A stretch of 64,000 bases of DNA from Streptomyces roseicoloratus (GTDB taxonomy: Bacteria; Actinomycetota; Actinomycetes; Streptomycetales; Streptomycetaceae). The stretch lies in the NCBI RefSeq assembly GCF_004117935.1, contig NZ_SDOY01000118.1:1-64000 (forward strand), read 5' to 3'. The notes beneath the pieces are model-generated. The model was given only the letters and a program-made list of their open reading frames with translations. It ran no database searches and was not told the origin of the DNA. The number at the start of each line of letters is the position of its first letter. Position 1 is the stretch's first letter. Below, piece after piece: positions 5,478-26,980 of the stretch. A program made the translations under genes and the position numbers.

Positions 5478-5536
5478 TTCGCGTGTTACTAGATAGACAT
5501 TCCCACCCATAGCTTTAGCTCTCTGGAGGCCCAACC

Positions 5537-6976
5537 ATGACCACCTTCGTGGACCGCGTCGAGCTGCACGTCGCCGCGGGTAACGGAGGCCACGGCTGCG
5601 CCTCCGTCCACCGGGAGAAGTTCAAGCCGCTCGGCGGCCCGGACGGCGGCAACGGCGGCCGTGGCGGCGACGTGATCCTGGTCGTCGACCAGTCCGTCAC
5701 GACGCTCCTCGAGTACCACCACTCGCCGCACCGCAAGGCGACCAACGGCAAGCCCGGTGAGGGCGGCAACCGCTCCGGCAAGGACGGCCAGGACCTGGTC
5801 CTGACCGTGCCCGACGGCACCGTCGTCCTCGACAAGAAGGGCAACGTGCTCGCCGACCTGGTCGGCGAGGGCACCACCTACGTCGCTGCCCAGGGCGGCC
5901 GTGGCGGCCTCGGCAACGCGGCGCTGGCCTCCGCCCGGCGTAAGGCGCCCGGCTTCGCGCTGCTCGGCGAGCCCGGCGACCTCCAGGACATCGTCCTGGA
6001 GCTCAAGACGGTCGCCGACGTGGCGCTCGTCGGCTACCCGAGCGCCGGCAAGTCCTCGCTGATCTCGGTCCTCTCGGCCGCGAAGCCGAAGATCGCGGAC
6101 TACCCCTTCACGACCCTCGTGCCGAACCTCGGCGTGGTCACGGCCGGCTCGACCGTCTACACCATCGCCGACGTCCCCGGCCTGATCCCGGGCGCCAGCC
6201 AGGGCCGCGGCCTCGGCCTGGAGTTCCTGCGCCACGTCGAGCGCTGCTCGGTGCTGGTGCACGTCCTCGACACGGCGACGCTGGAGTCCGACCGCGATCC
6301 GGTCACCGACCTCGACGTCATCGAGGAGGAGCTGAAGCAGTACGGCGGCCTCGACGACCGCCCGCGCATCGTCGTCCTCAACAAGATCGACATCCCGGAC
6401 GGCCAGGACCTCGCGGACATGATCCGCCCGGACCTGGAGGAGCGCGGCTACCGCGTCTTCGAGGTCTCCGCGATCGCCCGCACGGGCCTGAAGGAACTCT
6501 CCTTCGCGCTGGCCGACATCGTCGCGAAGGCCCGCGCGGCCAAGCCGAAGGAGGAGGCGACCCGCATCGTCATCCGCCCGAAGGCGGTCGACGACGCCGG
6601 CTTCACCGTCACCTACGACGAGCACGAGGACGTGTACCGGGTGCGCGGCGAGAAGCCCGAGCGCTGGGTCCGCCAGACCGACTTCAACAACGACGAGGCC
6701 GTCGGCTACCTCGCCGACCGCCTCAACCGCCTGGGCGTCGAGGACGAGCTGATGAAGGCCGGCGCCCGCGCCGGCGACGGCGTCGCGATCGGCTCCGAGG
6801 AGAACGCGGTCGTCTTCGACTGGGAGCCCTCGATGGTCGCGGGCGCCGAGATGCTCGGCCGCCGCGGCGAGGACCACCGCATGGAGGCGCCCCGCCCGGC
6901 CGCCCAGCGCCGCCGCGACCGCCAGGCCGAGCGCGACGACGCCCAGCGCGAGTTCGACGAGTTCGACCCGTTCTAG
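5537..6976 (+). CDS. obg: GTPase Obg
   Basis: Essential ribosome-associated GTPase linked to 50S assembly and, in Streptomyces, to growth and differentiation. 479 aa: glycine-rich Obg fold (about 1-160, with NGGRGGDV-type repeats), a G domain with G1 [10 protein letters not shown] near residue 165, switch DYPFTTL, G3 ADVPG and G4 NKID, then the OCT domain (about 350-430, [18 protein letters not shown]) and a basic/acidic tail. SD CTGGAGG (5523-5529) precedes the ATG. A GC hairpin at 6986-7006 follows. Confidence 0.97.
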
Positions 6977-6985
6977 GGCGTGCAG

Positions 6986-7006
6986 GGGGCCGCCGGCCGC
7001 GGCCCC
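6986..7006 (+). terminator. obg terminator
   Basis: Perfect 8-bp GC stem with a 5-nt loop, 9 nt after the obg stop, followed by TT. Confidence 0.65.
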
Positions 7007-7008
7007 TT

Positions 7009-7078
7009 GCCGTACCGCAGGCATACCGAAACGCCGTACCGCAGGCATACGAAACGCCGTACCGCAGGCATGCGAAAG
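7009..7078 (+). repeat. 23-24-bp tandem repeat, three copies
   Basis: Units begin GCCGTACCGCAGGCAT and run 7009-7032, 7033-7055 and 7056-7078, nearly identical. They sit between the obg hairpin and the convergent terminator. No coding role is seen. Confidence 0.85.
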
Positions 7079-7117
7079 GGGCCCGGTCTCCTCGTCAGAG
7101 GAGGCCGGGCCCCTTTC
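7074..7117. terminator. Bidirectional terminator between obg and the glycopolymer block
   Basis: 13-bp outer stem (7074-7086 with 7105-7117) plus a 6-bp inner stem (CTCCTC/GAGGAG). It has A and T runs on both sides, so it can end transcription from obg (+) and from the minus-strand cluster. Confidence 0.85.
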
Positions 7118-7126
7118 ACGGACTCG

Positions 7127-8749
7127 TCAGGCGACCGGGGCCGGTTCCGGTTCCGGGTCGGAGTCCTGCTGCTTCGACTCCGTCGGTCCCGTGGACGTCC
7201 GGTCCGGGCGCGGGCCGAAGCCGGGCTTCGCCCGGAGCAGCGGCAGGATCAGGATGCCGATGAAGATCGGGCCGATCATGTAGCGCCACAGCGGCGCCGG
7301 GTTCGCGGCGAGGACGGTCAGCTGGAGGCCCAGCGTGACCGCGAACAGCGCCGTCGTGCCCTTCAGCTTGGTGCGGCGGCGGAACAGCAGCACGATCGCG
7401 TACGTCGCGTAGCACCAGATCGCCCCGCGGAACAGCAGCCACTGCAGCTGCGGCACCTTGAACGTGCGCCAGGAGAAGTCCGCGACCTTGTGCAGCGGCT
7501 CCGACAGCGGGCGGATCTTCAGCTTCGGCCGGTACTCGCTGCGCTTGATCTCCTCGTTCCACTTGAGGTAGCTGAACAGCGTCTTCGAGGTCTGCGGGTC
7601 GCTCAGCAGCGTGTTCGCCCGCAGCTCCTTCGGGCCGGGGAAGATCGCCCACGCGATGTGCGCCCGGCACACCCGCGCGCCGATGACCAGGTCCGGCGTC
7701 CGCTTCATGACCCGCTCCCACAGGGCCATCAGCTCGTCGTTGCGCTCGGCCGCGAGGGGCCGGTTCATCGGCGGGGACTCCATCGCCCAGTCGGCGTTGT
7801 AGCAGTTGGCCGCGCGGCCCTTCCAGTGGGACAGCGGCGCGATGCTGGACATCAGCGCCTTGTCCTCCTTGGTGAAGAACCCGGGGCGCTGCCCGTAGGC
7901 GACGGCGATGTCCGCGTAGAAGAAGGCGTACACGGCGTCCTTCGGCGGGGTCTTCACCCCGGCCGCCGGGTAGATCACGGCGGTCAGCAGACCGAAGATC
8001 AGCACCGGCACGGCGGTCGCCGCGAGCACCCAGCGCCGCATCGACGGCAGGGCGATCAGCAGGATCGGCGCGGCGACGACGGCGACCAGCATGCCGTTGT
8101 TGCGGAACAGCGCCACGGCCAGGAAGCCCAGGAAGAGCAGGGCGACGGTGCGGTAGAAGTCCTTGTCCCGGACGGTCTGGCGGCCGCGGGCCCGCCGTGC
8201 CGCCAGCCGGCCCGCCGCGCCGAAGGCGAGGATCGAGCCGATGACGAACGGCACGTCCTTCCACACGAAGATGACGAAGACGGCGGTCGGCGGCAGCAGC
8301 GCCGGCACGCACGCGGCGACGGCCGCCCACCGCTGCCGGACACCCCACTTCCGCAGGGTGCCGGCGCAGTAGGCGAGCGTCGCCGACATGGCGACCGTCT
8401 GGGCCAGCGTCAGGATCCACAGATCACCGGTGGTGTTCAGCGACAGCCACACCAGGGAGTCGTAGACCACGGAGTGGTTCGACATCCAGTTGTCGGTGGT
8501 GACGTGCCAGACGTAGGTGATCGAGTCGTAGCTCAGGGCGCCGGGGAAGAACGCCGCCCACCAGAGCAGGAAGAGAACCTGCGTCGTCGCGAAGACCGCG
8601 AAAGGCAGTCGGCGCTTCTCCGGGATTCTCTCCCACTGCTTGCTGAGGAAGGCGTTGCGCGGGAGTTTCAACTCGGCTCCGCTGGGCATAGTGGACGGAC
8701 GGTCGGGACAGTCGAACAGGTTAGCCGGTTCAGACGGTCTCTCGGTCAC
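7127..8749 (-). CDS. DUF6020-like polytopic membrane protein, probable extracytoplasmic glycosyltransferase
   Basis: 540 aa with roughly ten or more hydrophobic segments. After the first segment comes a loop with SYDSITYVWHVTTDNW, the kind of acidic loop motif seen in GT-C glycosyltransferases that use polyprenyl-phosphate sugars outside the membrane. A soluble stretch (about residues 290-430) precedes the last segments and a Pro/Glu-rich tail. The GTG at 8749 has GAGGTG upstream and overlaps the preceding stop by 20 nt; an ATG at 8689 is an alternative. It is the last gene of the minus-strand operon and ends in front of the bidirectional hairpin. Family membership and function are inferred from layout and resemblance only. 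Confidence 0.6.
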   Translation of the reverse strand: MTERPSEPANLFDCPDRPSTMPSGAELKLPRNAFLSKQWERIPEKRRLPFAVFATTQVLFLLWWAAFFPGALSYDSITYVWHVTTDNWMSNHSVVYDSLVWLSLNTTGDLWILTLAQTVAMSATLAYCAGTLRKWGVRQRWAAVAACVPALLPPTAVFVIFVWKDVPFVIGSILAFGAAGRLAARRARGRQTVRDKDFYRTVALLFLGFLAVALFRNNGMLVAVVAAPILLIALPSMRRWVLAATAVPVLIFGLLTAVIYPAAGVKTPPKDAVYAFFYADIAVAYGQRPGFFTKEDKALMSSIAPLSHWKGRAANCYNADWAMESPPMNRPLAAERNDELMALWERVMKRTPDLVIGARVCRAHIAWAIFPGPKELRANTLLSDPQTSKTLFSYLKWNEEIKRSEYRPKLKIRPLSEPLHKVADFSWRTFKVPQLQWLLFRGAIWCYATYAIVLLFRRRTKLKGTTALFAVTLGLQLTVLAANPAPLWRYMIGPIFIGILILPLLRAKPGFGPRPDRTSTGPTESKQQDSDPEPEPAPVA

Positions 8750-11000
8750 GGGGCCGGGTCACCTCGGCCAGCGGCTGCTGTCCCGGCCGCGGCGGCACCG
8801 GACGCTCACCGATCGGCAGCACCGGCGGAACCTCGTTCTGGCCGAGGAACACCTTGCGCACCACCCGCTCGGCCGCCCGGCCGTCGTCGAACTCGCAGAA
8901 GGTCCTGCGGAACTCGGCACGGGCCGCGTCCGACTCGGGCCCGTTCCAGCGGCCCGAGGTGAAGACCTCCAGCAGCTCCTCCTCGGTCTGCACGGTCACA
9001 CCGGGAGTGTCGACGGTGATGTCGAAGTAGGTGCCGCGCGTGGTGCGGTACACCTCCCAGTCGTTCGCGTAGATGACGATCGGCCGGTCGAGGTTCGCGT
9101 AGTCGAACATCACCGACGAGTAGTCCGTGAGCAGGCAGTCCGCGGCGAGGTACAGCTCCTCGACCGACGGGTAGGAGCTCACGTCGACCAGACGCGCGCC
9201 GCCGGCCGAACCGGAGGCCAGCAGGCTCTGGTCGTAGAAGTAGTGCGCGCGCACCAGGAGCGTGAACTCGGAGCCGACCGTCTCCGCGAACTTCTCCAGG
9301 TCCAGCATCTGCTTCGGGGCGTCGTGGTAGTCGCGGTGCGTCGGCGTGTAGAGGATCACCTTGGTGCCCTCGGCGATGCCGAGCTTCTTGCGGGCCGCGG
9401 CCACGTCCGCCGCCGACGCGTTCACGAGCTGGTCGTTGCGCGGGTAGCCGTACTCCAGCGCCTCGTAGTACGAGGGGTAGGCGCGGTCCCAGGCGGCGGT
9501 GGAGAAGCTGTTGGAGGTGAGGCTGTAGTCCCAGCGGTCCACCCGGTCCATCAGCCGGACCAGGTTCATCCCGCGACGGCCGACCGGGTAGTCCGCCAGG
9601 TCGACGCCCATGCGCTTGAGCGGGGTGCCGTGGTGGGTCTGGAGGTGGACCTGACCGGGGCGCTTGACCACGGACGGCGGGAAGTTGACGTTGTTGACGA
9701 AGTACTTGCCGCGCGCCATGGCCTTCCAGAACCCGAGCGAGCCCGGGTGGACGGTCGGCACGCCCTTCGGCGGACGGCTGGTGGCGTCGTTCTTGAGGAT
9801 CCACACCGCCTTCATGCCGGGCGCGAGTTCCTTCATCTTCTCGTGGATCGCCGCCGGGTTGCAGGAGTACGAGCCGTTCCAGTACGCCGCGAAGACGGCG
9901 ACGTCCTGCTGGACCGGGAGCAGGCGCTGGGCCCGGTAGTAGGCCTGGAGGACGCGCTTGCGCAGCTTCTTCTTCAGCTTCGCCGGCACGGACTTCTTCT
10001 GCTTGAGCGAACGGACCGTCTTGCGGGCCTTCTCGCGGTGCTTGGCCGGGATCATCTGGCCCTTGCCGCGCGGGGCGGCCGGGTGGCCCTCGGGACGGAG
10101 ACGTCCCTCCGCCTCGGCCCAGCGCTCGCGGAACTCGGCGCGCGCGTCGTCGGGCAGGCGGCCGGGCGAGACGTCGACCACGCGGAAGTGGTTGACCATC
10201 CGCTCGTACAGGGCGCCGCGGTACTCGTCGAACCGCGGGTTCTCGTCGAGGAACGCGAAGACCAGGTCGTACTGGTCGAACACGTCGAAGTGCTTGCGGC
10301 TCGTGCTGTGCAGGATGCTGCCCTGGCGCCGCTGGCGGTAGTAGACGCAGACGCGGTCGAGCACGGCGATGGTCTCCGCCGCGATCATGACCGGGTAGGT
10401 CCAGGGGGTGTCCTCGTAGTAGCCCGAGGGGTACTGGAAGCCCCACTGCTCGATGAAGTCCCGGCGGTACGCCTTGTTCCACGCGACCTGGAGCAGGTTG
10501 AGCAGCTCCGGCTGGTCCTTCAGCGCGAAGACGCCCTGCTTGGCGGCCTTGGCCAGCACGTCGGCACGGGCGTTCGGCGTGATCCGGCCGTCCCAGTGGG
10601 TGCGCGAGTAGTCGAAGACCACCAGGTCGGGGTTCTCGGCCTCCTCGATGCGGCGGGCGATGGCCTGGAGCGAGCCGGGCAGCATCGTGTCGTCGCTGTC
10701 GAGGAAGAGCAGGTACCTGCCCTTGGCGCGGGCCATGCCCGCGTTGCGCGCCCGGCCGAGACCGACGTTCTGCTCCAGGTGCATCGCCACGACGCGCGGG
10801 TCGGCCTTGGCGTAGTCGTCGATGATGGCGCCGCAGCCGTCCGGCGAGCAGTCGTTCACGACCAGGAGCTCGTAGTCCCGGAACGACTGCTCGAGCACCG
10901 AGTCCAGACAGTCCCGCAGGAACGCCTGCACCTTGTACGTCGGAACGATGATGCTGAACAGGGGGACTTCGGAACCGGAGGAGGAGTGCGTCTGTGTCAT
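8730..11000 (-). CDS. Bifunctional GT2 glycosyltransferase / CDP-glycerol glycerophosphotransferase (TagF-like)
   Basis: 756 aa. The N-terminal GT2 domain (about 10-230) has SIIVPTYK, VNDCSPDG and the LFLDSDDTM metal-binding motif. A basic linker follows, then a Glyphos_transf (TagF/TarF-type) domain (about 340-700) with QTHHGTPLKRMG near residue 453 and TDYSSVMFDY near 625, which carry the family histidine and substrate-binding residues. Such fusions build or extend glycerol-phosphate (teichoic-type) wall polymers at the inner membrane face. The ATG at 11000 is used because the longer open frame runs back through the neighbouring gene. There is a 47-bp gap to the upstream GT2. The polyol used and the order of the two reactions cannot be read from sequence. 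Confidence 0.85.
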   Translation of the reverse strand: MTQTHSSSGSEVPLFSIIVPTYKVQAFLRDCLDSVLEQSFRDYELLVVNDCSPDGCGAIIDDYAKADPRVVAMHLEQNVGLGRARNAGMARAKGRYLLFLDSDDTMLPGSLQAIARRIEEAENPDLVVFDYSRTHWDGRITPNARADVLAKAAKQGVFALKDQPELLNLLQVAWNKAYRRDFIEQWGFQYPSGYYEDTPWTYPVMIAAETIAVLDRVCVYYRQRRQGSILHSTSRKHFDVFDQYDLVFAFLDENPRFDEYRGALYERMVNHFRVVDVSPGRLPDDARAEFRERWAEAEGRLRPEGHPAAPRGKGQMIPAKHREKARKTVRSLKQKKSVPAKLKKKLRKRVLQAYYRAQRLLPVQQDVAVFAAYWNGSYSCNPAAIHEKMKELAPGMKAVWILKNDATSRPPKGVPTVHPGSLGFWKAMARGKYFVNNVNFPPSVVKRPGQVHLQTHHGTPLKRMGVDLADYPVGRRGMNLVRLMDRVDRWDYSLTSNSFSTAAWDRAYPSYYEALEYGYPRNDQLVNASAADVAAARKKLGIAEGTKVILYTPTHRDYHDAPKQMLDLEKFAETVGSEFTLLVRAHYFYDQSLLASGSAGGARLVDVSSYPSVEELYLAADCLLTDYSSVMFDYANLDRPIVIYANDWEVYRTTRGTYFDITVDTPGVTVQTEEELLEVFTSGRWNGPESDAARAEFRRTFCEFDDGRAAERVVRKVFLGQNEVPPVLPIGERPVPPRPGQQPLAEVTRPRDRETV

Positions 11001-11047
11001 CTCAATACCGTGGAATCTGACGGGGGAGACAGGCCGTGACCGCCGGG

Positions 11048-11992
11048 TCAGCGCTGGCTCGTGGACAGGGCGTAGCCGAGGAGCGTGCGTATGGTCTTCG
11101 ACTGCCCGTGCCGCACCGCCCCCGGAACCATTGTCAGCGCGTGCAGTCGCATGGACAGGTGGCGACGCGCGGCGCGCGCGGCCTTCGGCCAGCCGTGGGC
11201 GTCGAGGTCGTCGGCCACTTCGTGGAAGAAGCGCACGGCCTCGCCGAAGCGGGCGCCGGACACGGCTTCCGCCGAGGAGAGGCTGCCGGAGTGCCGGCGG
11301 TAGCGGAACACGGTCGTCGGGTCGACGACCAGCTTTCCGCCGCGCCGGATCAGCTCGATGATCAGCGCGAGATCCTGGATGACCGAGAGGTCCTCCCGGA
11401 AGCTGATCTCCTTGACGGCGTCGGCACGCCAGACGATGGACGGGAAGTAGAGCCAGTTGCCGCCGAGGAGGTTGGCGGCCAGCGACTCGCCGGACAGCAC
11501 CAGGCGCCGCCCGGTGGTCTTCGGCGCGTACAGGCGCTTCTTCACCTCGTCGCCGAGGGTCGTCGAGGGCTTGCCGTGCTCGTCGATGACCTCGACGCCC
11601 GGCTGGTAGATCGTCGCGTGGGGGAACGCCGCGACGGCGGCGCGCATGGTCGCGACGTAGTCCGGCAGCAGCAAATCGTCGCTGCCGAGCATGCTGAAGT
11701 GGCGGGACTCGACGAGGTCGACGCACTTGCGGAAGTTCCGGGTGATGCCCAGGTTCTGCTCGTTGCGCAGGTAGCGGACCCGGCTGTCGCCGAGGGAGGC
11801 GAACCACTCGGGCACGCCGGGCTCCTTGCCGTCGTCGACGACGGTCAGGCGCCAGTTCGGGTCGCTCTGCTCCAGCACGCTGCGCACGGCGGCCTGCATC
11901 AGACCGGTGTCGCCGTAGTGCGGCAGCATGATGTCGAGCGGCTCGCCGGCCGTCGTGCCGTCGGCGCCCCGGGGATTCTGCACCGCGGTCAC
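11048..11992 (-). CDS. Family 2 glycosyltransferase
   Basis: 314 aa, cytoplasmic GT-A fold enzyme. It shows the N-terminal IMLPHYGDTGLMQAAV strand-loop, VVDDGKEPGV (nucleotide binding), LGITRNFRKCV and MLGSDDLLLPDY (DxD-like metal site), then a QDLALIIEL segment and RYRRHSGSLSS. There are no membrane spans. The GTG start forms a GTGA overlap with the stop of the upstream DPM1-like gene, so translation is probably coupled. The donor sugar is unknown; dTDP-rhamnose from the adjacent rml genes is a reasonable guess. Confidence 0.8.
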   Translation of the reverse strand: MTAVQNPRGADGTTAGEPLDIMLPHYGDTGLMQAAVRSVLEQSDPNWRLTVVDDGKEPGVPEWFASLGDSRVRYLRNEQNLGITRNFRKCVDLVESRHFSMLGSDDLLLPDYVATMRAAVAAFPHATIYQPGVEVIDEHGKPSTTLGDEVKKRLYAPKTTGRRLVLSGESLAANLLGGNWLYFPSIVWRADAVKEISFREDLSVIQDLALIIELIRRGGKLVVDPTTVFRYRRHSGSLSSAEAVSGARFGEAVRFFHEVADDLDAHGWPKAARAARRHLSMRLHALTMVPGAVRHGQSKTIRTLLGYALSTSQR

Positions 11993-12723
11993 TTGGTCTT
12001 CCCCTTGGGGCCGAGGGCCGAGCGGCGGCTGAGCGCGAGCAGCAGGATCATGCCGATGCGGCCCAGGTAGAGCGTGGCCTTCCAGGGCGACTGGCTGGGC
12101 GTGCCGGTGGCGCGCGGGCGCATGGCGACGGGCACCTGCTCGACGCGGTAGCCGGCCCGGACGACGGCGATGGTCGACTCGACCGTGTCGCCCAGGTACT
12201 CCACCGGGTACCAGTGCGCGAAGACGTCGATCAGGTCGCGGTTGGAGGCGCGGAAGCCGGAGGTGACGTCGGTCAGCTTGGTCCTGGCCATCTTCGACAG
12301 CCAGAAGGCGAGCACGACCATGGCCCACTTGCGCGGGCCGCGGGTCTCGTAGTCGCCCGTGCCGGCGAAGCGCGCGCCCATGCAGAGGTCGGCGCCCTGG
12401 TCCAGGCGGGCGAGCAGCTCCGGCACGTTGCGCGGGTCGTGCTGGCCGTCGGCGTCGACCTGGATGGCGACGTCGTAGCCGCGGTCGTACGCGTAGCGGT
12501 AGCCGGCGCGCATCGCGCCGCCCACGCCGAGGTTGTAGGGGAGCGTCATCACGGTCGCCCCGGCGGAGCGGGCCACCCGGCTGGTGTCGTCGGCCGAGCC
12601 GTCGTCGACGACGAGGACGTCGACCCCGGGAAGCGTCGCGTAGACCTCCTTGACGACGTCGGCGACGCCCTCGGCCTCGTTCCACGCGGGCATGATGATC
12701 AGTACGCGCTTGCCGTCGATCAC
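11989..12723 (-). CDS. DPM1-like family 2 glycosyltransferase (polyprenyl-phosphate sugar synthase type)
   Basis: 244 aa. Motifs in order: LIIMPAWNEAEGV, VLVVDDGSADDT, YNLGVGGAMRAGYRYA, QVDADGQHDPRNV and TSGFRASNRD, the pattern of dolichyl/polyprenyl-phosphate mannose or glucose synthases. One hydrophobic segment lies near the C-terminus (IGMILLLALS). The GTG start overlaps the DUF2304 stop (GTGA), so the two are translated together, a pairing common in Gram-positive surface-polysaccharide loci. Expected role: charging polyprenyl phosphate with a sugar at the inner membrane face. The sugar is not known. Confidence 0.82.
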   Translation of the reverse strand: MIDGKRVLIIMPAWNEAEGVADVVKEVYATLPGVDVLVVDDGSADDTSRVARSAGATVMTLPYNLGVGGAMRAGYRYAYDRGYDVAIQVDADGQHDPRNVPELLARLDQGADLCMGARFAGTGDYETRGPRKWAMVVLAFWLSKMARTKLTDVTSGFRASNRDLIDVFAHWYPVEYLGDTVESTIAVVRAGYRVEQVPVAMRPRATGTPSQSPWKATLYLGRIGMILLLALSRRSALGPKGKTK

Positions 12724-13124
12724 TTGAGGCCCCCCTGCCCGGCCCGGCCGGCCGCGTCCGCGGACGTGGTGTGCTCCGCGACCTGCTTCTGCAGTTCCTG
12801 TACGTCGATGCGGAGCAGTGCCACCTCCTCCGAAAGGGTGCGGCCCTCCTCCTCGAGGTGACCCACCTCCCAGCTCAGCTGGAGGCAGACGATGAAGAGG
12901 AACGCGACGCTGAGGAAGAGCAGCAGGCTGACGCCGGAGCGGACGCCCACCGCGCGGGCCACCGAGTCGAGGCCGCTCGGGAAGAAGCCCAGCGGGATGA
13001 TCACCAGTCCGGTGAGCACCCAGAGGAAGGCGTACTTCTCCTTGAGCTTGCGGCGGCGCAGCAGCTCGACGATGCACGCGACGAGAAAGACTCCGGTGAC
13101 CGAAGTCAGCATCCACAACTTCAC
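12720..13124 (-). CDS. DUF2304 small membrane protein
   Basis: 134 aa with three hydrophobic segments (about 3-22, 32-50, 65-85) followed by a C-terminal coiled-coil-like stretch (WEVGHLEEEGRTLSEEV and on). It looks like DUF2304, a family usually found beside DPM1-like glycosyltransferases. GTG start with GGAG about 7 nt upstream. First gene of a five-gene minus-strand run whose members overlap or nearly abut. Role is likely as membrane partner, anchor or flipping factor for the lipid-linked sugar; this is inference. Confidence 0.75.
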   Translation of the reverse strand: MKLWMLTSVTGVFLVACIVELLRRRKLKEKYAFLWVLTGLVIIPLGFFPSGLDSVARAVGVRSGVSLLLFLSVAFLFIVCLQLSWEVGHLEEEGRTLSEEVALLRIDVQELQKQVAEHTTSADAAGRAGQGGLK

Positions 13125-13260: not shown

Positions 13261-14529
13261 CTATGAGTGCACCGAACGGTAGCGTACACGAGGGCGAAGA
13301 AGGATCGTCATGCAGGCCACCACGGCCAGCGACCCCACGGCGTAGGCGATCTCGACCCTGGTCCGCAGCTCCAGGGGACTCAGCGTGACCGCCAGGAGCA
13401 CCGCCGTACCGATGATCCAGGACACCAGCTGCTGCCGTGCGCCGCCACTCGTGAGCAGCGCCTGACCCAGCACCATCGCCATCATGTAGAGCGTCGTGCC
13501 GACCGACAGCCACAGGAAGTCCACGGGCCCCAGCACGTCCGGAGAGCCGAACAGCACCGGCAGCAGGAACGGTCCCAGCGCCACCGCGACGACCCCGAAC
13601 ACCACGCCCATGCCGCCGGTGAGCGCGCAGGCCCGCAGCAGCAGCCGCCGGTAGCCCTGCGCGTCGCCCTCGGCCTGCGCCGTGGACAGACCCGCCAGCA
13701 GCGAGGCCTGGAAGGCGCCGAACGCGAAGAGCGGCACGCGGGCCAGGACCAGTGCCGACAGCAGCGCCGCGACCAGGGCGCTGTCGTCCGTGGAGATCAG
13801 CTTGGTGCTGATCACCGCGATGTTCACGAGCACCTGGGCGAGCAGCGTCGAACCGACCAGCAGCCCGAGGTGCTCGATCAGCTCGGGCCAGTGCGCGGTC
13901 GAACCCGGCCGCGCCCCGCGCAGCACCGGCGGCAGCGTCACCAGCACCGAGATCAGCGGCGCGACCGTCATCACCGCGGCGAACGCCACCACGGACGTGA
14001 CGCCGGCCAGCGCCAGGGCCACCGAGAACACGATCCTCAGCAGCCCGTCGAGCCCCAGCTGCAGCCCGTACGACTCGAAGCGGCCGAGCCCCGCGAGCAC
14101 ACCGCGGGTCACGTGCGCGCAGGCCAGCGCCGCGAAGGCGCCGCCGAGCGCGGCCACCAGAGCCTTGTCGCCGTGGAAGAGGAGGTCCGCGATCGGACCC
14201 GCCCACACCGCCAGCGGCAGCAGCACCGCCGCCAGCAGCGCGGAAGAGAGGACGGCGCCCCGCCGCAGCACGGGCAGCGCACCGTCGCCGGCCACCACCC
14301 GGGCGGCCACCACACGGGTGACCTCCTGCTCGACCGGGAAGAACAGACCCAGACCTATGGAGGCCACCACGGTCCACAGGACCGAGAAGCTCGCCATGTC
14401 GTCGACGGAGAGCGAATGGCCCGCCGCCGCGAGATGGACGTAGTTCGCCCCGCCGAGCAGCGCGGTGCCGATACCCACGAAGGCGGTACCGCGCGGCAGA
14501 GCGGTGGTGATGCGGTCGAGCACGGTCAC
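13261..14529 (-). CDS. MOP-superfamily lipid/polysaccharide flippase (Wzx-like)
   Basis: 422 aa with about twelve hydrophobic segments and little else. The N-terminal FSVLWTVVASIGLGLFFPVEQE, with its FFPVEQE loop, and the repeated half-structure resemble oligosaccharide flippases of the MOP/MATE superfamily. The GTG start lies in a GTGA overlap with the rmlD stop, so it belongs to the rmlBD transcript. Expected job: moving a lipid-linked rhamnose-containing unit across the membrane. The 136-bp gap to DUF2304 (13125-13260) may hold a promoter for the downstream five genes; no clear consensus was read there. Confidence 0.75.
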   Translation of the reverse strand: MTVLDRITTALPRGTAFVGIGTALLGGANYVHLAAAGHSLSVDDMASFSVLWTVVASIGLGLFFPVEQEVTRVVAARVVAGDGALPVLRRGAVLSSALLAAVLLPLAVWAGPIADLLFHGDKALVAALGGAFAALACAHVTRGVLAGLGRFESYGLQLGLDGLLRIVFSVALALAGVTSVVAFAAVMTVAPLISVLVTLPPVLRGARPGSTAHWPELIEHLGLLVGSTLLAQVLVNIAVISTKLISTDDSALVAALLSALVLARVPLFAFGAFQASLLAGLSTAQAEGDAQGYRRLLLRACALTGGMGVVFGVVAVALGPFLLPVLFGSPDVLGPVDFLWLSVGTTLYMMAMVLGQALLTSGGARQQLVSWIIGTAVLLAVTLSPLELRTRVEIAYAVGSLAVVACMTILLRPRVRYRSVHS

Positions 14530-15446
14530 GCGCCCGACCGTCCGCCCTCGACCGGGGCCGGGCCCGCGCCCGGGGCCATGACCTTCAGCGCCTCGGTGAG
14601 CTGCTCGCGCCAGTGCGGCTGCACCGCCACGCCCGCCTCGGCCCAGCGCTCGTGCGCCAGGACGCTGAAGGAGGGACGGCGGGCCGGCCGGACGAACTTC
14701 TCCGAGGTGGTCGGCCGCACCCGCTCCGGGTCCAGGCCGGTCAGCTCGAACGTCGCCCGCGCCAGGTCACACCAGGTCGCCGTCTCCGACGCGGTGCCGT
14801 GGTAGACGCCCGCCGGGGCCTCGCCCCGCACGGCCGCCGCGCCCAGGTCCCGCAGCTGGCACGCGAGCGCCCGGGTCCAGGTCGGCTGGCCGCGCTGGTC
14901 GTCGACCACGTCGAGGGTCTCGCGCTGGGCCGCCAGGCTCAGCATCGTCGCCACGAAGTTCCGGCCGTGGGCGCCGTACAGCCAGGCGGTGCGCACCACG
15001 TAGCCGCGCTCGGGCAGCAGCTCCAGGACCGCCTCCTCGCCCGCGAGCTTGCTGCGGCCGTAGGCGTTCACCGGAGAGGTCGGGGCGTCGTGGGGGTACG
15101 GCTCGGTCGCGTCGCCCGGGAAGACGTAGTCGGTCGAGACCTGGATCAGCACCGCGCCGGTCACGGCGCAGGCCGCGGCGAGGGCGCGCGGGCCGTCGCC
15201 GTTGATCCGGGTGGCCGCGGCCTCCTCGGTCTCGGCGCCGTCGACGTCGGTCCAGGCGGCGGCGTTGACGACCACGTCGTGGCCGTCGACCGCCGCGCGG
15301 ACCGCGTCGGCGTCGGTGATGTCGAGCTCGGCGCGGGTCAGCGCGGTCACGTCGGCGCCGGCCTCGGCCAGGACCTCGGCGAGGTCGCGGCCGAGCATGC
15401 CGGCCGCGCCGGTGATCAGCCAGCGGGTGGGGGCGTCGGCACTCAT
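14526..15446 (-). CDS. rmlD: dTDP-4-dehydrorhamnose reductase
   Basis: 306 aa. Last step of dTDP-L-rhamnose synthesis, NAD(P)H-dependent reduction of dTDP-4-keto-L-rhamnose. Rossmann motif WLITGAAGMLGRDL at the N-terminus, STDYVFPGD, and the catalytic YGRSK (YxxxK). The ATG at 15446 overlaps the rmlB stop by one base (TGATG) and gives the normal family N-terminus; the longer frame to 15506 is a read-through of rmlB. It couples by GTGA to the flippase gene. Confidence 0.95.
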   Translation of the reverse strand: MSADAPTRWLITGAAGMLGRDLAEVLAEAGADVTALTRAELDITDADAVRAAVDGHDVVVNAAAWTDVDGAETEEAAATRINGDGPRALAAACAVTGAVLIQVSTDYVFPGDATEPYPHDAPTSPVNAYGRSKLAGEEAVLELLPERGYVVRTAWLYGAHGRNFVATMLSLAAQRETLDVVDDQRGQPTWTRALACQLRDLGAAAVRGEAPAGVYHGTASETATWCDLARATFELTGLDPERVRPTTSEKFVRPARRPSFSVLAHERWAEAGVAVQPHWREQLTEALKVMAPGAGPAPVEGGRSGA

Positions 15447-16432
15447 CAGGCCAGCGCCGCCTTGGCCTTCAGCGGCTCCCACCAGGCGCGGTTGTCGCGG
15501 TACCACTGGACGGTGTCGGCGAGGCCCTGCTCGAAGGTGACGAGCGGCTGGTAGCCGAGCTCCTCCTGGATCTTGGCGATCGACAGGGAGTAGCGCAGGT
15601 CGTGGCCCTTGCGGTCCTCGACGTGCTCGACCATGTCCCAGCCGGCGCCGCAGGCGTCCAGCAGCAGACCGGTGAGCTCCTTGTTGGTGACCTCGGTGCC
15701 GCCGCCGATGTGGTAGACCTCACCGGCGCGTCCGCCGCGGAGCACCATCTCGATGCCACGGCAGTGGTCCGAGACGTGCAGCCAGTCGCGGATGTTCAGG
15801 CCCTCGCCGTACAGCGGGACCTTCTTCCCGTCCAGCAGGTTCGTGGTGAACAGCGGGATCATCTTCTCGGGGAAGTGGTACTGCCCGTAGTTGTTGGAGC
15901 AGCGGGTCACCACGACGTCCATGCCGTGCGTGCGGTGGTACGACAGCGCCAGCAGGTCCGAGCCGGCCTTGGAGGCCGAGTACGGGGAGTTCGGCGCGAG
16001 CGGCCAGTCCTCGGTCCAGGAACCCTCGGCGATCGAGCCGTACACCTCGTCCGTGGAGACGTGCACGAACCGGCCGACGCCGTGCCGCTTGGCCGCGTCG
16101 AGGAGCACCTGGGTGCCCAGCACGTTCGTGGTGACGAACGGCGAGGAGTCCAGGATCGAACGGTCCACGTGGGACTCGGCGGCGAAGTGCACCACCGCGT
16201 CCTGGCCGCGCATGACGTCGTCGACGGTGGCGTAGTCGCGGATGTCGCCCTGGACGAAGGTGTATCCGGGCTTGTCCGCCACGGGGGCGAGATTGGCCTC
16301 GTTACCCGAATAGGTGAGGTTGTCCAGGACGGTGACCTGGGCGCCCTCGCTGGTGGGCAGCTCTCCGGAGAGCAGTGCCCGCACGAACTGTGAACCGATG
16401 AACCCGGCGCCGCCGGTGACCAGAATCCTCAT
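15446..16432 (-). CDS. rmlB: dTDP-glucose 4,6-dehydratase
   Basis: 328 aa, NAD-dependent short-chain dehydrogenase family enzyme making dTDP-4-keto-6-deoxyglucose. Shows [37 protein letters not shown] and the catalytic YSASKAGSD (YxxxK). The ATG at 16432 is chosen: it gives the standard N-terminus and has GGTGG five bases upstream. An in-frame ATG at 16444 would add four residues. It heads the minus-strand rml-wall-polymer run, divergent from rmlA across about 150 bp. Confidence 0.95.
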
Positions 16433-16568
16433 AAGGGCCACCATTCTATGGGCTCGGGTGCCGGCACCAGTTCGCCCGGTGTTCCGTGGCCGTTCTCACG
16501 CGGAGGGCCAGTGGCCCTTCTCACGCGGGGCGGGGGCGGGGGTGGCGGTGGGCCCGTCGGTGCTGCCG

Positions 16569-16582
16569 TAGGCTGCGTGCCC
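16569..16582 (+). promoter_or_regulatory. rmlA -10 element, leaderless arrangement
   Basis: TAGGCT (16569-16574) ends 8 bp before the rmlA ATG, which would place the transcript start at or next to the start codon. The same TAGGCT box stands in front of galE and nadD. Confidence 0.5.
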
Positions 16583-17461
16583 ATGCGTGGAATTTTGCTT
16601 GCCGGTGGTACCGGCTCCCGACTGTGGCCGATCACCCGAGCCGTGTCGAAGCAGCTGATGCCGGTCTTCGACAAGCCGATGATCTATTACCCCCTGTCGA
16701 CCCTCGTGATGGCGGGCATCAGGGAGATTCTGATCATCACCGGCCCCGAGGAGCGTCCGCAGTTCGAGCGGCTTCTGGGCGACGGGTCCGATTTCGGACT
16801 GGACATCCAGTTCGCGACCCAGGAGAAGCCGAACGGAATTGCCGAGGCCTTCGTCATCGGTGAGGAATTCATCGGTGACGACCCGGTCGCCCTGATCCTC
16901 GGCGACAACATCTTCCACGGCGTCGGCCTCGGCCGGCAGCTCGCGAAGTACGGGCAGCCCGAGGGCGGCGTGGTCTTCGCCCACGCCGTCTCCGACCCCA
17001 CCGCCTACGGTGTCGTCGACTTCGACGAGAACGGCGTCGCCCGTTCCATCGAGGAGAAGCCGAAGAACCCGAAGTCCCGCTACGCGGTGCCGGGCCTCTA
17101 CTTCTACGACAGCCGGGTCGTCGAGATCGCCAGGAACCTCGAGCCGAGCGCCCGCGGCGAGCTGGAGATCACCGACGTCAACAAGTACTACCTCGACCGC
17201 GGCGAGCTCCAGGTCTCCGTCCTGGACCGCGGCACCGTCTGGCTGGACACCGGCACCTTCCAGTCCCTGGTCCAGGCCTCCGAGTACGTCCGCGTGGTCG
17301 AGGAGCGCCAGGGCATGAAGATCGGCTGCCTCGAGGAGGCCGCCTGGCGCGCCGGCTTCATCGACGACGCCCACCTGCGCACCCTCGCCGAGCCGCTGAC
17401 GAAGAGCGGATACGGCGACTACCTGCTCGACCTGCTGGCGCACGAAGCCGAGCAGGCCTGA
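16583..17461 (+). CDS. rmlA: Glucose-1-phosphate thymidylyltransferase
   Basis: 292 aa, the usual RmlA length. Makes dTDP-glucose from dTTP and glucose-1-phosphate. N-terminal [18 protein letters not shown] with the [17 protein letters not shown] segment, [16 protein letters not shown] and [13 protein letters not shown] are all hallmark RmlA motifs. The ATG at 16583 gives the exact family start; the open frame further upstream is Gly/Pro-rich spacer. Followed after 27 bp by rmlC, so the four rhamnose genes form a divergent rmlAC/rmlBD set. Confidence 0.97.
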
Positions 17462-17488
17462 GACCCGAGAGAGGAAACGGCTCTTTCC

Positions 17489-18094
17489 ATGAAGGTCAAC
17501 CCCCTTGGTATCGAGGGCGCCTGGGAGTTCGTCCCGCAGCAGCACGGCGACGCCCGCGGTCTCTTCCTGGAGTGGTACAAGGCGGAGCGCATGGCCGAGG
17601 CGGTCGGCCACCCGCTGAACCTGAAGCAGGGCAACCTCTCGGTGTCCGCCGCCGGTGTCGTCCGCGGCATCCACTTCGCCGACGTGCCGCCCGGCCAGGC
17701 CAAGTACGTGACGTGCGTGCGCGGCGCGGTCCTCGACATCATCGTGGACGTCCGGGTCGGCTCGCCGACCTTCGGCCGCTGGGAGGCCGTGCGCCTCGAC
17801 GACCAGGACCGCAAGGCCGTCTACCTCTCCGAGGGCCTCGGCCACGGTTTCTGCGCGCTGACGGACGACGCCACCGTGACGTACCTCTGCTCCGAGGGCT
17901 ACGCGCCGGAGCGCGAGCGCACCGTCTACCCGCTGGACCCGGAGATCGGCATCGAGTGGCCGGTCGACGGCGTGCCCGAGCTGTCCGCCAAGGACGCCGA
18001 GGGCCCGACCCTCGCGCAGGCGCGCGAGGCGGGCATCCTGCCGGTGTACGAGGAGTGCGTGGCGTTCCGCGCGTCGCTGGCGGAGCGCGGCTGA
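17489..18094 (+). CDS. rmlC: dTDP-4-dehydrorhamnose 3,5-epimerase
   Basis: 201 aa cupin epimerase, third step of dTDP-rhamnose synthesis. Conserved GDARGLFLEWYK, GVVRGIHFADVPPGQAKYV (with the catalytic His), VYLSEGLGHGF and the SEGYAPERERTV region are present. Co-transcribed with rmlA and closed by a strong hairpin at 18122-18162. A 3-epimerase-only variant cannot be excluded by eye, but the complete rml set favours RmlC. Confidence 0.93.
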   Translation: MKVNPLGIEGAWEFVPQQHGDARGLFLEWYKAERMAEAVGHPLNLKQGNLSVSAAGVVRGIHFADVPPGQAKYVTCVRGAVLDIIVDVRVGSPTFGRWEAVRLDDQDRKAVYLSEGLGHGFCALTDDATVTYLCSEGYAPERERTVYPLDPEIGIEWPVDGVPELSAKDAEGPTLAQAREAGILPVYEECVAFRASLAERG

Positions 18095-26340: not shown

Positions 26341-26961
26341 ATGGGAGAGCAGGAAGTGCCTACTGGCGGTCGCGGCAAGCGCCGACTCGGCGTGATGGGC
26401 GGAACGTTTGACCCGATCCACCACGGACACCTGGTGGCCGCCAGCGAGGTGGCCGCCCTGTTCCACCTCGACGAGGTGGTGTTCGTGCCGACCGGGCAGC
26501 CCTGGCAGAAGAGCCACAAGGCCGTCTCGCCGGCCGAGGACCGCTATCTGATGACGGTCATCGCCACCGCGTCCAACCCGCAGTTCTCCGTCAGCCGCAT
26601 CGACATCGACCGCGGCGGCGCGACGTACACCATCGACACCCTGCGGGACCTGCGCTCCCTCAACAGCGACTCGGATCTCTTCTTCATCACCGGCGCCGAC
26701 GCGCTGTCGCAGATCCTCACCTGGCGCGACGCCGAGGAGCTCTTCGCCCTCGCCCACTTCATCGGTGTCACCCGCCCGGGTCACGACCTCACCGACGACG
26801 GCCTGCCCAAGGGCGGCGTGTCGCTGGTCGAGGTCCCCGCGCTCGCCATCTCCTCCACGGACTGCCGGGCGCGGGTCGCACAAGGCGACCCGGTCTGGTA
26901 TCTGGTCCCGGACGGTGTGGTGCGCTACATCGACAAGCGCCAGTTGTACCGCGGCGAGTGA
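26341..26961 (+). CDS. nadD: Nicotinate-nucleotide adenylyltransferase
   Basis: 206 aa. Adenylates nicotinate mononucleotide in NAD synthesis. Nucleotidyltransferase motifs [17 protein letters not shown] (with the HxGH-type site) and [13 protein letters not shown] (ISSTxxR). The 15-residue N-terminal extension before the fold ([14 protein letters not shown]) is usual in Streptomyces. Starts the nadD-LCP-rsfS-phosphatase run that is conserved in actinomycetes. Confidence 0.96.
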
Positions 26962-26980
26962 GCCTCGGGGAGGGGCACCG

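What the first reader, a model, noticed from the sequence alone, without database searches (positions are those of the whole stretch)
7127..13124. Candidate three-component extracytoplasmic glycosylation system in one operon
A DPM1-like GT2, a DUF2304 small membrane protein (GTGA-coupled to it) and a polytopic DUF6020 protein with an acidic first outer loop sit in one run with a TagF-like fusion. Known: CsbB/GtcA/YfhO-type systems use a GT2 to charge polyprenyl phosphate, a small membrane protein to flip it and a GT-C enzyme to glycosylate wall polymer outside. Inference: the DUF2304 and DUF6020 proteins are the actinobacterial counterparts, modifying the polymer made by the TagF-like enzyme.
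Basis: inference. Interest (0 to 1): 0.7.

Follow-up and report, generated by a model that had tools for sequence, protein, structure and literature searches.

The report
Four-part Streptomyces wall-polymer sugar-decorating operon
A soil bacterium carries an operon that probably loads a sugar onto a membrane lipid, flips it outward with a dedicated flippase and attaches it to a cell-wall polymer with a previously unassigned membrane enzyme; the kind of system is known, but this version and its last enzyme appear new.

Summary
The central idea, sugar transfer outside the membrane, is supported; the part assignment is partly wrong. (1) The polytopic protein has a GT-C fold: AlphaFold model pLDDT 92.6; VIA rows 1-43 are GT-C-fold chains (ArnT, Pmt4 Z 16.9), then a fall to Z 5.2. 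Its Pfam label DUF6020 is below cut-off (21.7 of 28.3 bits). (2) DUF2304 is unlikely to be a GtcA-like flippase: it is typical of GacJ-like GT2 activators, and 11 of 11 DUF2304 loci carrying the GT-C gene encode a separate flippase candidate. So this looks like a four-component GacI/J/K/L-type system, not CsbB/GtcA/YfhO. Actinobacterial relatives are known (PpgS/Rv3632/Rv3779). New here: the GT-C assignment, its link to TagF-like and rhamnose genes, GtrA/Wzx exchange, and a flippase/GT-C fusion. DUF2304 and this GT-C often occur apart. Sugar and acceptor are inferred.

The parts
15446..16444 (-). rmlB (dTDP-glucose 4,6-dehydratase-like), upstream end of the run
   Evidence: Frame; used as the RmlB reference. 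The name rests on recall and on the neighbouring rmlA/C/D; this ORF was not itself scanned against Pfam.
14526..15446 (-). rmlD (dTDP-4-dehydrorhamnose reductase), taking the ATG at 15446 as start
   Evidence: PF04321, 332.6 bits. One search used 15452 as its upper end and so printed a gap of -7 to rmlB; with the ATG it is -1.
13261..14529 (-).
   Evidence: No Pfam or NCBIfam match; AF2 pLDDT 83.9; Foldseek 58 PDB hits with E<=1e-3, the 50 listed being MOP-superfamily chains (MATE, MurJ, WzxE); VIA top WzxE Z 33.4, rmsd 3.5, 395 aligned
12720..13124 (-). DUF2304 protein (134 aa, 3 TM plus hydrophilic tail), GacJ/WpsB-type partner of the GT2
   Evidence: PF10066 79.1 bits; 3 TM by hydropathy; DUF2304 typical of GacJ-like proteins per PMC8327497
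11989..12723 (-). DPM1/PpgS-like GT2 (244 aa, no TM by hydropathy), DxDxQ motif DADGQ at residue 90; GTGA overlap with DUF2304
11048..11992 (-). second GT2 (314 aa), GTGA overlap with the first; candidate rhamnosyltransferase extending the lipid-linked sugar
   Evidence: PF00535 53.4 bits; no DxDxQ; present in 7 of 7 rml-bearing and 0 of 4 rml-free DUF2304+GT-C loci
8730..11000 (-). TagF-like fusion: N-terminal GT2 and C-terminal Glyphos_transf; candidate maker of the acceptor polymer
   Evidence: PF04464 411.8 bits, PF00535 123 bits
7127..8689 (-). GT-C-fold polytopic transferase (520 aa from ATG 8689; alternative GTG start 8749), distant DUF6020 relative
   Evidence: AF2 pLDDT 92.6, pTM 0.91; Foldseek/VIA to GT-C enzymes; invariant D55, K144, D145, R196 in 46 of 46
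7066..7135 (-). strong hairpin at the end of the run, between the GT-C gene and the convergent obgE; candidate terminator
   Evidence: -47.1 kcal/mol, z -6.8, 0 of 200 shuffles as stable (stretch chosen by eye); not found by the T-tract terminator scan
16448..18094 (+). rmlA and rmlC (divergent), completing dTDP-rhamnose supply
   Evidence: PF00483 and PF00908

Best explanation
A four-component transmembrane glycosylation system of the GacI/GacJ/GacK/GacL (WpsA/B/G/J) type, placed in a teichoic-acid-like locus. Step 1: the DPM1-like GT2, held at the membrane and activated by the 3-TM DUF2304 protein, moves a sugar from a nucleotide donor to polyprenyl phosphate. Step 2: the second, GTGA-coupled GT2 probably adds rhamnose made by rmlABCD. 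Step 3: the Wzx-like MOP protein flips the lipid-linked saccharide. Step 4: the GT-C enzyme transfers it, outside, to a wall polymer, most likely the one made by the TagF-like fusion. Shown here computationally: gene content and order, the folds of the flippase and GT-C proteins, the DxDxQ signature, conserved linkage in several genera, exchange of the flippase type. Inferred: every biochemical step, the identity of the sugar, the rhamnose step and the acceptor.
For: GT-C fold: (VIA rows 1-43 of 50 are GT-C-fold chains, Z 16.9 to 7.9, then 5.2; four of the 43 are GPI-transamidase chains, GT-C-like but, as recalled, not sugar transferases). Flippase fold. GT2: DxDxQ, proposed in PMC10821137 as a possible hallmark of polyisoprenyl-phosphate transferases, found in the GT2 nearest DUF2304 in 19 of 19 loci listed; relatives DPMS and PpgS. 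DUF2304 as GT2 activator. Linkage: of 45 named loci of the GT-C family, 32 have a polyprenyl-phosphate-sugar-type GT2 module (DUF2304-linked 11, GT2 of the GT2-GtrA fusion type 17, GtrB-type 5, one locus having two kinds), and 30 of these 32 also show a flippase gene or domain. In the window's genome there are 1 DUF2304, 2 GtrA and 6 DPM-like GT2 matches in 7.6 Mb, so such linkage is not expected by chance. In Nonomuraea endophytica (L070) the order is GT2-DUF2304-GtrA-GT-C-TagF x3, so GtrA (75.5 bits) takes the flippase slot. In Streptomyces jeddahensis (L059) the flippase and the GT-C are one 949-aa open frame. TagF-like hits in 20 of 45.
Against: 13 of 45 loci show no such GT2 module in the DNA held, several being short contigs. 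Actinacidiphila epipremni (L057) keeps flippase, TagF and GT-C but has no DUF2304, GT2 or second GT2 there, only a GtrB/GtrA pair further on. 25 of 45 loci have no TagF-like hit, and a TagF hit may rest on its GT2 half alone, so the acceptor need not be a TagF product. Foldseek's GT-C matches have E-values of 6.9e-3 or worse and TM of 0.3-0.4; the case rests on the VIA ranking. Sequence profiles alone find no solved relative. Loci of one genus are related, so counts are not independent.
Confidence: 0.72

Rival explanations
1. One reading: a three-component CsbB/GtcA/YfhO-type system in which the DUF2304 protein is the flippase.
For: DUF2304 is a small membrane protein; one annotation paper calls the mycobacterial Rv3632 a 'putative flippase' (PMC8562490 passage).
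Against: DUF2304 has 3 TM and no GtrA match at E<=10; DUF2304/GacJ/WpsB activate the GT2; a separate Wzx- or GtrA-type flippase candidate is encoded in 11 of 11 DUF2304+GT-C loci; the GT2 shows no membrane anchor.
Confidence: 0.05
2. The module makes a lipid-linked oligosaccharide whose GT-C enzyme acts as polymerase or as the ligase joining a second glycan chain (as WpsJ joins PSP to rhamnan), not as a decorator with one small unit.
For: A second GT2 is coupled to the first, Wzx-type flippases are known for oligosaccharides, and WpsA/B/G/J is the closest described layout. GT-C enzymes of the Emb/Aft type are among the VIA rows.
Against: No separate polymerase or chain-length regulator was recognised in the run; the best VIA rows are ArnT and Pmt4, recalled as single-sugar transferases.
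Confidence: 0.2
3. The GT-C enzyme glycosylates exported proteins, as PMT enzymes do.
For: Pmt4 and Pmt1/Pmt2 are among the best structural matches.
Against: The neighbourhood is wall-polymer and rhamnose genes, TagF-like hits in 20 of 45 loci; S. coelicolor SCO2589-2590, TagF-like, are described as wall teichoic acid genes (PMC3937824 passage).
Confidence: 0.03

Closest known systems
GacI/GacJ/GacK/GacL of Streptococcus pyogenes (and EpaI/EpaJ of Enterococcus)
   Same: GT2, small DUF2304-type activator, Wzx-type flippase and polytopic GT-C enzyme encoded together; GT2 and DUF2304 genes adjacent
   Different: There the acceptor is a rhamnan and GlcNAc is added; here a TagF-like gene and a second GT2 lie in the run. 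GacL itself was not compared with the window GT-C
WpsA/WpsB/WpsC/WpsG/WpsJ of Lactococcus
   Same: Same four roles plus cytoplasmic GTs that extend the lipid-monophosphate sugar, rhamnose first in strain NZ9000
   Different: No polymerase pair recognised here; acceptor polymer probably different
PpgS (Rv3631)/Rv3632/Rv3779 of Mycobacterium tuberculosis and cgp_0391-0396/cgp_0658 of Corynebacterium glutamicum
   Same: Actinobacterial GT2 (best NCBIfam match of the window GT2 is PpgS, 106 bits) with a small membrane partner and a later transferase acting on a wall polymer
   Different: Score far below the PpgS cut-off of 370 bits; transferase gene elsewhere by number, acceptor arabinogalactan; the flipping factor there is called unidentified
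gsf cluster of Actinoplanes missouriensis
   Same: A proposed actinobacterial multi-component extracellular glycosylation system (PMC13390465 passages)
   Different: GtrA-type flippase; its transmembrane transferase is stated not to be GT-C; no DUF2304 mentioned in the passages seen
CsbB/GtcA/YfhO three-component systems
   Same: GT2 charges the lipid, a flippase moves it, a GT-C enzyme transfers the sugar
   Different: Membrane-anchored GT2, GtrA-type flippase and YfhO family: none found among the window locus proteins scanned
S. coelicolor SCO2589-SCO2592 region
   Same: TagF-like genes described for wall teichoic acid; that they lie near obgE (SCO2595) is recalled
   Different: DUF2304 is over cut-off in only 11 of 199 genomes of the genus; gene content of S. 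coelicolor was not compared here

Membership tests
Four-component Gac/Wps-type glycosylation system | GT-A GT2 of DPMS type with DxDxQ and no membrane anchor | tested here: met
   DADGQ at residue 90, 0 TM by hydropathy, DPMS/PpgS relatives
Four-component Gac/Wps-type glycosylation system | Adjacent DUF2304 3-TM partner | tested here: met
   79.1 bits, 4-base overlap, 3 TM by hydropathy
Four-component Gac/Wps-type glycosylation system | Wzx-type flippase in the cluster | tested here: met
   Fold: WzxE Z 33.4; position conserved. Transport itself not testable here
Four-component Gac/Wps-type glycosylation system | GT-C-fold transferase in the cluster | tested here: met
Four-component Gac/Wps-type glycosylation system | Makes polyprenyl-P-sugar and glycosylates a wall polymer | not testable with these tools
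   needs membranes, lipids and wall analysis
CsbB/GtcA/YfhO three-component system | GtrA-type flippase in the locus | tested here: not met
   No GtrA match in the 6 window proteins scanned at E<=10; the 2 GtrA matches of the genome lie on other contigs
CsbB/GtcA/YfhO three-component system | GT2 with C-terminal membrane anchor | tested here: not met
   0 TM by hydropathy in the 244-aa GT2
CsbB/GtcA/YfhO three-component system | YfhO-family GT-C | tested here: not met
   The only Pfam match at E<=10 is PF19484
DUF6020 (PF19484) | Score over the curated cut-off | tested here: not met
   21.7 of 28.3 bits; of 4 distant relatives scanned 2 pass (L044, L046) and 2 do not match (L043, L047)
GT-C superfamily | GT-C transmembrane core | tested here: met
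   VIA rows 1-43 of 50 are GT-C-fold chains
GT-C superfamily | DxD or modified DxD in an outer loop | tested here: inconclusive
   Single invariant D55 in the loop after TM1, 46 of 46; no DxD there; which loop faces out is inferred
DUF2304 (PF10066) | Score over the curated cut-off | tested here: met
   79.1 against 25.5 bits
MOP/Wzx flippase | MOP fold | tested here: met
MOP/Wzx flippase | Pfam Polysacc_synt match | tested here: not met
   0 families for the window protein; 2 of 15 aligned homologues match PF01943 at E<=0.1
PpgS (NF058614) | Score over the curated cut-off | tested here: not met
   106 of 370 bits

The most novel reading that the evidence does not exclude
The 7127-8689 protein belongs to an actinobacterial GT-C family, not described before, that works with interchangeable charging modules (GT2+DUF2304, GT2-GtrA fusion, GtrB+GtrA) and interchangeable flippases (Wzx-like or GtrA). 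In Streptomyces it attaches a rhamnose-containing disaccharide, built on polyprenyl monophosphate, to a teichoic-acid-like polymer. By the same logic the Wzx-like gene beside PpgS-like/DUF2304 pairs in other actinobacteria would be the flippase called unidentified in the mycobacterial galactosamine pathway.
Probability: 0.35. Interest if true: 0.68.

Novelty: new variant of a known kind. Interest (0 to 1): 0.52.

Why it matters
No paper in the searched open-licence library names DUF6020, and only one names DUF2304. A GT-C assignment would give a function to a group found in Streptomyces, Actinacidiphila, Kitasatospora, Streptacidiphilus, Actinomadura, Streptosporangium and Nonomuraea. It would offer a compact operon in which charging, flipping and transfer lie together, one relative even fusing flippase and transferase. 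It also gives a testable flippase candidate for DUF2304-type pathways, where the step is described as unidentified in the mycobacterial case (PMC9671496 passage).

Tried and rejected
DUF2304 as flippase: rejected, see rivals. Strict co-occurrence of DUF2304 and the GT-C: rejected. In the genus, DUF2304 matches 14 of 199 genomes (11 over cut-off) and the GT-C 5 of 199, 3 of them strongly, all three with DUF2304 (two GT-C matches, E 7e-6 and 3e-4, dropped as weak; three DUF2304 matches below cut-off and one on a contig edge, L041, not followed). In the class, DUF2304 matches 50 of 246 (42 over cut-off) and the GT-C 4 of 246, 2 strongly, of which one, G502, has no DUF2304 match. In the phylum, 76 and 5 of 198, overlapping in 2, one of them with the two genes on different contigs; only the window's own match there is strong. 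A single-sequence query finds few remote relatives, so these are lower bounds; the profile search that would have been better failed. One search scanned with two peptide patterns only, so relatives without them were missed.

Polytopic proteins of other Streptomyces DUF2304 loci (L035-L040): profile comparison with the GT-C family gave nothing (probability 0.7%), no PDB match; one (L042) matches PF02366 PMT just over cut-off, 23.1 against 22.7 bits. The DUF2304 protein has no meaningful PDB match. One search counts use my own phmmer thresholds; changing them would move some loci. That script scored 32 of 45 loci as having a flippase, because it counted every GT2 of the fusion type; the GtrA half itself was detected in 15 of those 17 (not in L075 and L088), so I report 30. 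Only L056, L070 and L072 had their GtrA confirmed by Pfam. L040's flippase ORF was not picked, so 6 of 7 such loci show it. L034 and L054 are the same place (contigs of equal length), as are probably L044 and L097.
Full report
What is there. The window is a stretch of contig C112 of a 7.6 Mb genome; the closest named relatives of its GT-C gene are Streptomyces. On the minus strand a run reads rmlB, rmlD, a 422-aa membrane protein, DUF2304, a DPM1-like GT2, a second GT2, a GT2-Glyphos_transf (TagF-like) fusion and a polytopic protein, ending in a hairpin before the convergent obgE (5537-6976, named from recall). Gaps in that order are -1 (with the ATG at 15446; one search used a later end and printed -7), -4, 136, -4, -4, 47 and 40 bp. 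rmlA and rmlC diverge upstream, followed by a nucleotide-sugar epimerase and a proB-like kinase.

The polytopic protein. Pfam gives only a sub-threshold DUF6020 match (21.7 of 28.3 bits). A pattern scan of one genome for each of 84,980 species gave 45 loci of relatives. With these and the window (46 sequences) AlphaFold2 built a model of mean pLDDT 92.6 and pTM 0.91. Foldseek found no PDB hit at E 1e-3 or better, but its first ten are all GT-C enzymes (AftB, Pmt1/Pmt2, ArnT, Pmt4). VIA-align placed GT-C-fold chains in rows 1-43 of 50: ArnT 5ezm Z 16.9 (rmsd 4.5, 300 aligned), Pmt4 9i5k Z 16.9 (rmsd 4.3, 320 aligned), down to AftD Z 7.9; row 44 is AmtB, Z 5.2. Four of the 43 (9ub7, 7w72, 8imx, 7wld) are GPI-transamidase chains, GT-C-like by recall but not sugar transferases; for the translocon entries 8b6l and 9n9j I take the chain to be the oligosaccharyltransferase subunit. 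The top Z and the gap below make a chance helical match unlikely. Invariant in 46 of 46 are, among others, D55 in the loop after TM1, K144-D145 in the WKDVPF motif and R196. I take D55 as the likely catalytic acid by analogy with GT-C enzymes; that is inference.

The flippase. The 13261-14529 protein has no Pfam or NCBIfam match. Modelled with ten relatives (mean pLDDT 83.9), it has 58 PDB hits with E<=1e-3; the 50 listed are MOP-superfamily chains (MATE, MurJ, WzxE), the best TM-scores (0.79/0.81) being to WzxE. VIA ranks WzxE first, Z 33.4. A fold shows no function, but its place in the cluster fits a lipid-linked saccharide flippase.

DUF2304 and its GT2. A review states that a DUF2304 domain is typical of GacJ-like proteins, encoded beside the GacI homologue (PMC8327497, passages). 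GacJ and WpsB raise the activity of their GT2, and DxDxQ is proposed as a possible hallmark of GT2 enzymes making polyprenyl-phosphate sugars (PMC10821137, passages). Rismondo et al. describe the variant with a soluble GT-A enzyme, a membrane partner, a Wzx-type flippase and a GT-C (PMC8035078, passages). The window GT2 has DADGQ at residue 90 and no TM segment; the second GT2 and the TagF fusion lack DxDxQ. DxDxQ is present in the GT2 nearest DUF2304 in 19 of 19 loci that one search listed (those whose DUF2304 and GT2 were found by phmmer; two of the 19 are the same place).

Neighbourhoods. Over the 45 named loci (phmmer thresholds in that script): DUF2304 in 11, GT2 of the GT2-GtrA fusion type in 17, GtrB-type GT2 in 5, together 32 of 45; polysaccharide deacetylase in 25; TagF-like in 20 (some hits may rest on its GT2 half). 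A flippase gene or domain is present in 30 of 45: the script's figure of 32 counts all 17 fusion-type GT2s, but the GtrA half was detected in 15 of them. The 13 without a GT2 module are L062, L064, L066, L067, L068, L073, L074, L079, L083, L091, L093, L096 and L097, several on short contigs. Of the 11 DUF2304 loci all have a separate flippase candidate: Wzx-like in 9 (one also GtrA), GtrA alone in 2. L070 has GtrA between DUF2304 and the GT-C, where L061 and L063 have the Wzx-like gene. L059 encodes flippase (residues 7-369) and GT-C (451-933) in one open frame; this is one assembly, and a sequencing error could have removed a stop. The second GT2 occurs in 7 of 7 DUF2304 loci with rml genes and 0 of 4 without, which suggests a rhamnosyltransferase; the 7 are closely related, so they are not seven independent observations. 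For comparison, the window's genome holds 1 DUF2304, 2 GtrA and 6 DPM-like GT2 matches in 7.6 Mb.

Tree. On the GT-C tree the DUF2304 label needs 3 changes (shuffled mean 10.0) and the fusion label 1, with 13 unlabelled rows left out. DUF2304-linked members are found in Streptomyces and Actinacidiphila, Actinomadura, Streptosporangium, Nonomuraea endophytica and a MAG, so the linkage is old or repeated; long branches make details unsure.

Other Streptomyces. Seven further DUF2304 loci of the genus (L035-L040, L042) have rmlB, the second GT2 and a polytopic protein in 7 of 7, and a Wzx-like protein in 6 of 7, but the polytopic protein does not match this GT-C family; in L042 it is PMT, PF02366. 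So the GT-C slot also appears to be exchanged. In three genomes of another genus of the class (G038, G096, G150; loci L050-L052) a Wzx-like gene (E 1e-12, 8e-14, 3e-10) lies beside a DPM-like GT2 and DUF2304. This resembles the order Rv3630-Rv3631-Rv3632; Rv3630 was reported MATE-like (PMC8562490, passages).

Against. In the samples searched the two families mostly do not co-occur; L057 lacks DUF2304 and both GT2 genes but has the rest; most Nonomuraea loci lack TagF-like hits. The acceptor is therefore the weakest step.

Mechanism and likelihood. Four-component system: 0.72. DUF2304 as GT2 partner: about 0.85. GT-C fold: about 0.95. Wzx-like protein as flippase for this module: about 0.75. 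TagF product as acceptor in this window: about 0.5. Second GT2 as rhamnosyltransferase on the lipid: about 0.4. These numbers are judgements; the corrected flippase count (30, not 32) did not change them.

Known or new. The kind is known, in Actinobacteria too: PpgS with Rv3632 and Rv3779 decorates arabinogalactan with galactosamine, and homologues act in C. glutamicum (PMC9671496, PMC3485146 and PMC5964476, passages); a GtrA-type multi-component system is proposed in Actinoplanes (PMC13390465, passages). What I did not find in print (searches, limited to open-licence PMC papers) is a GT-C assignment for this DUF6020-like group or a description of this operon. Hence: new variant of a known kind.

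Noticed in passing
L072:9235-9921 and 24 other loci of L053-L097: A polysaccharide deacetylase (PF01522, 133.5 bits in L072) lies within 7.4 kb of the GT-C gene in 25 of 45 loci, 24 of them Nonomuraea, in 17 together with a GT2 of the GtrA-fusion type; it could deacetylate a lipid-linked amino sugar.
   Followed up: partly
L059:8645-11494: Streptomyces jeddahensis: Wzx-like flippase and GT-C in one 949-aa open frame.
   Followed up: partly
L057:2814-11566: Actinacidiphila epipremni lacks DUF2304, GT2 and second GT2 between flippase and TagF genes, unlike the closely related L056; both have a GtrB/GtrA-like pair downstream.
   Followed up: partly
   Followed up: partly
window 26765-28771 +: LytR-CpsA-Psr domain with LytR_C domain, a possible ligase anchoring the polymer; S. 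coelicolor has PdtA (SCO2578).
   Followed up: no
window 5489-7048 -, 7116-8420 -, 6980-8962 + and similar: Long overlapping frames, probably an effect of G+C-rich DNA; only 5489-7048 was scanned, without a Pfam match.
   Followed up: no
L037:4296-6941: An Amidase_2 protein (PF01510) follows the polytopic protein in the other Streptomyces DUF2304 layout; S. coelicolor SCO2591 is listed as an amidase beside SCO2590.
   Followed up: no
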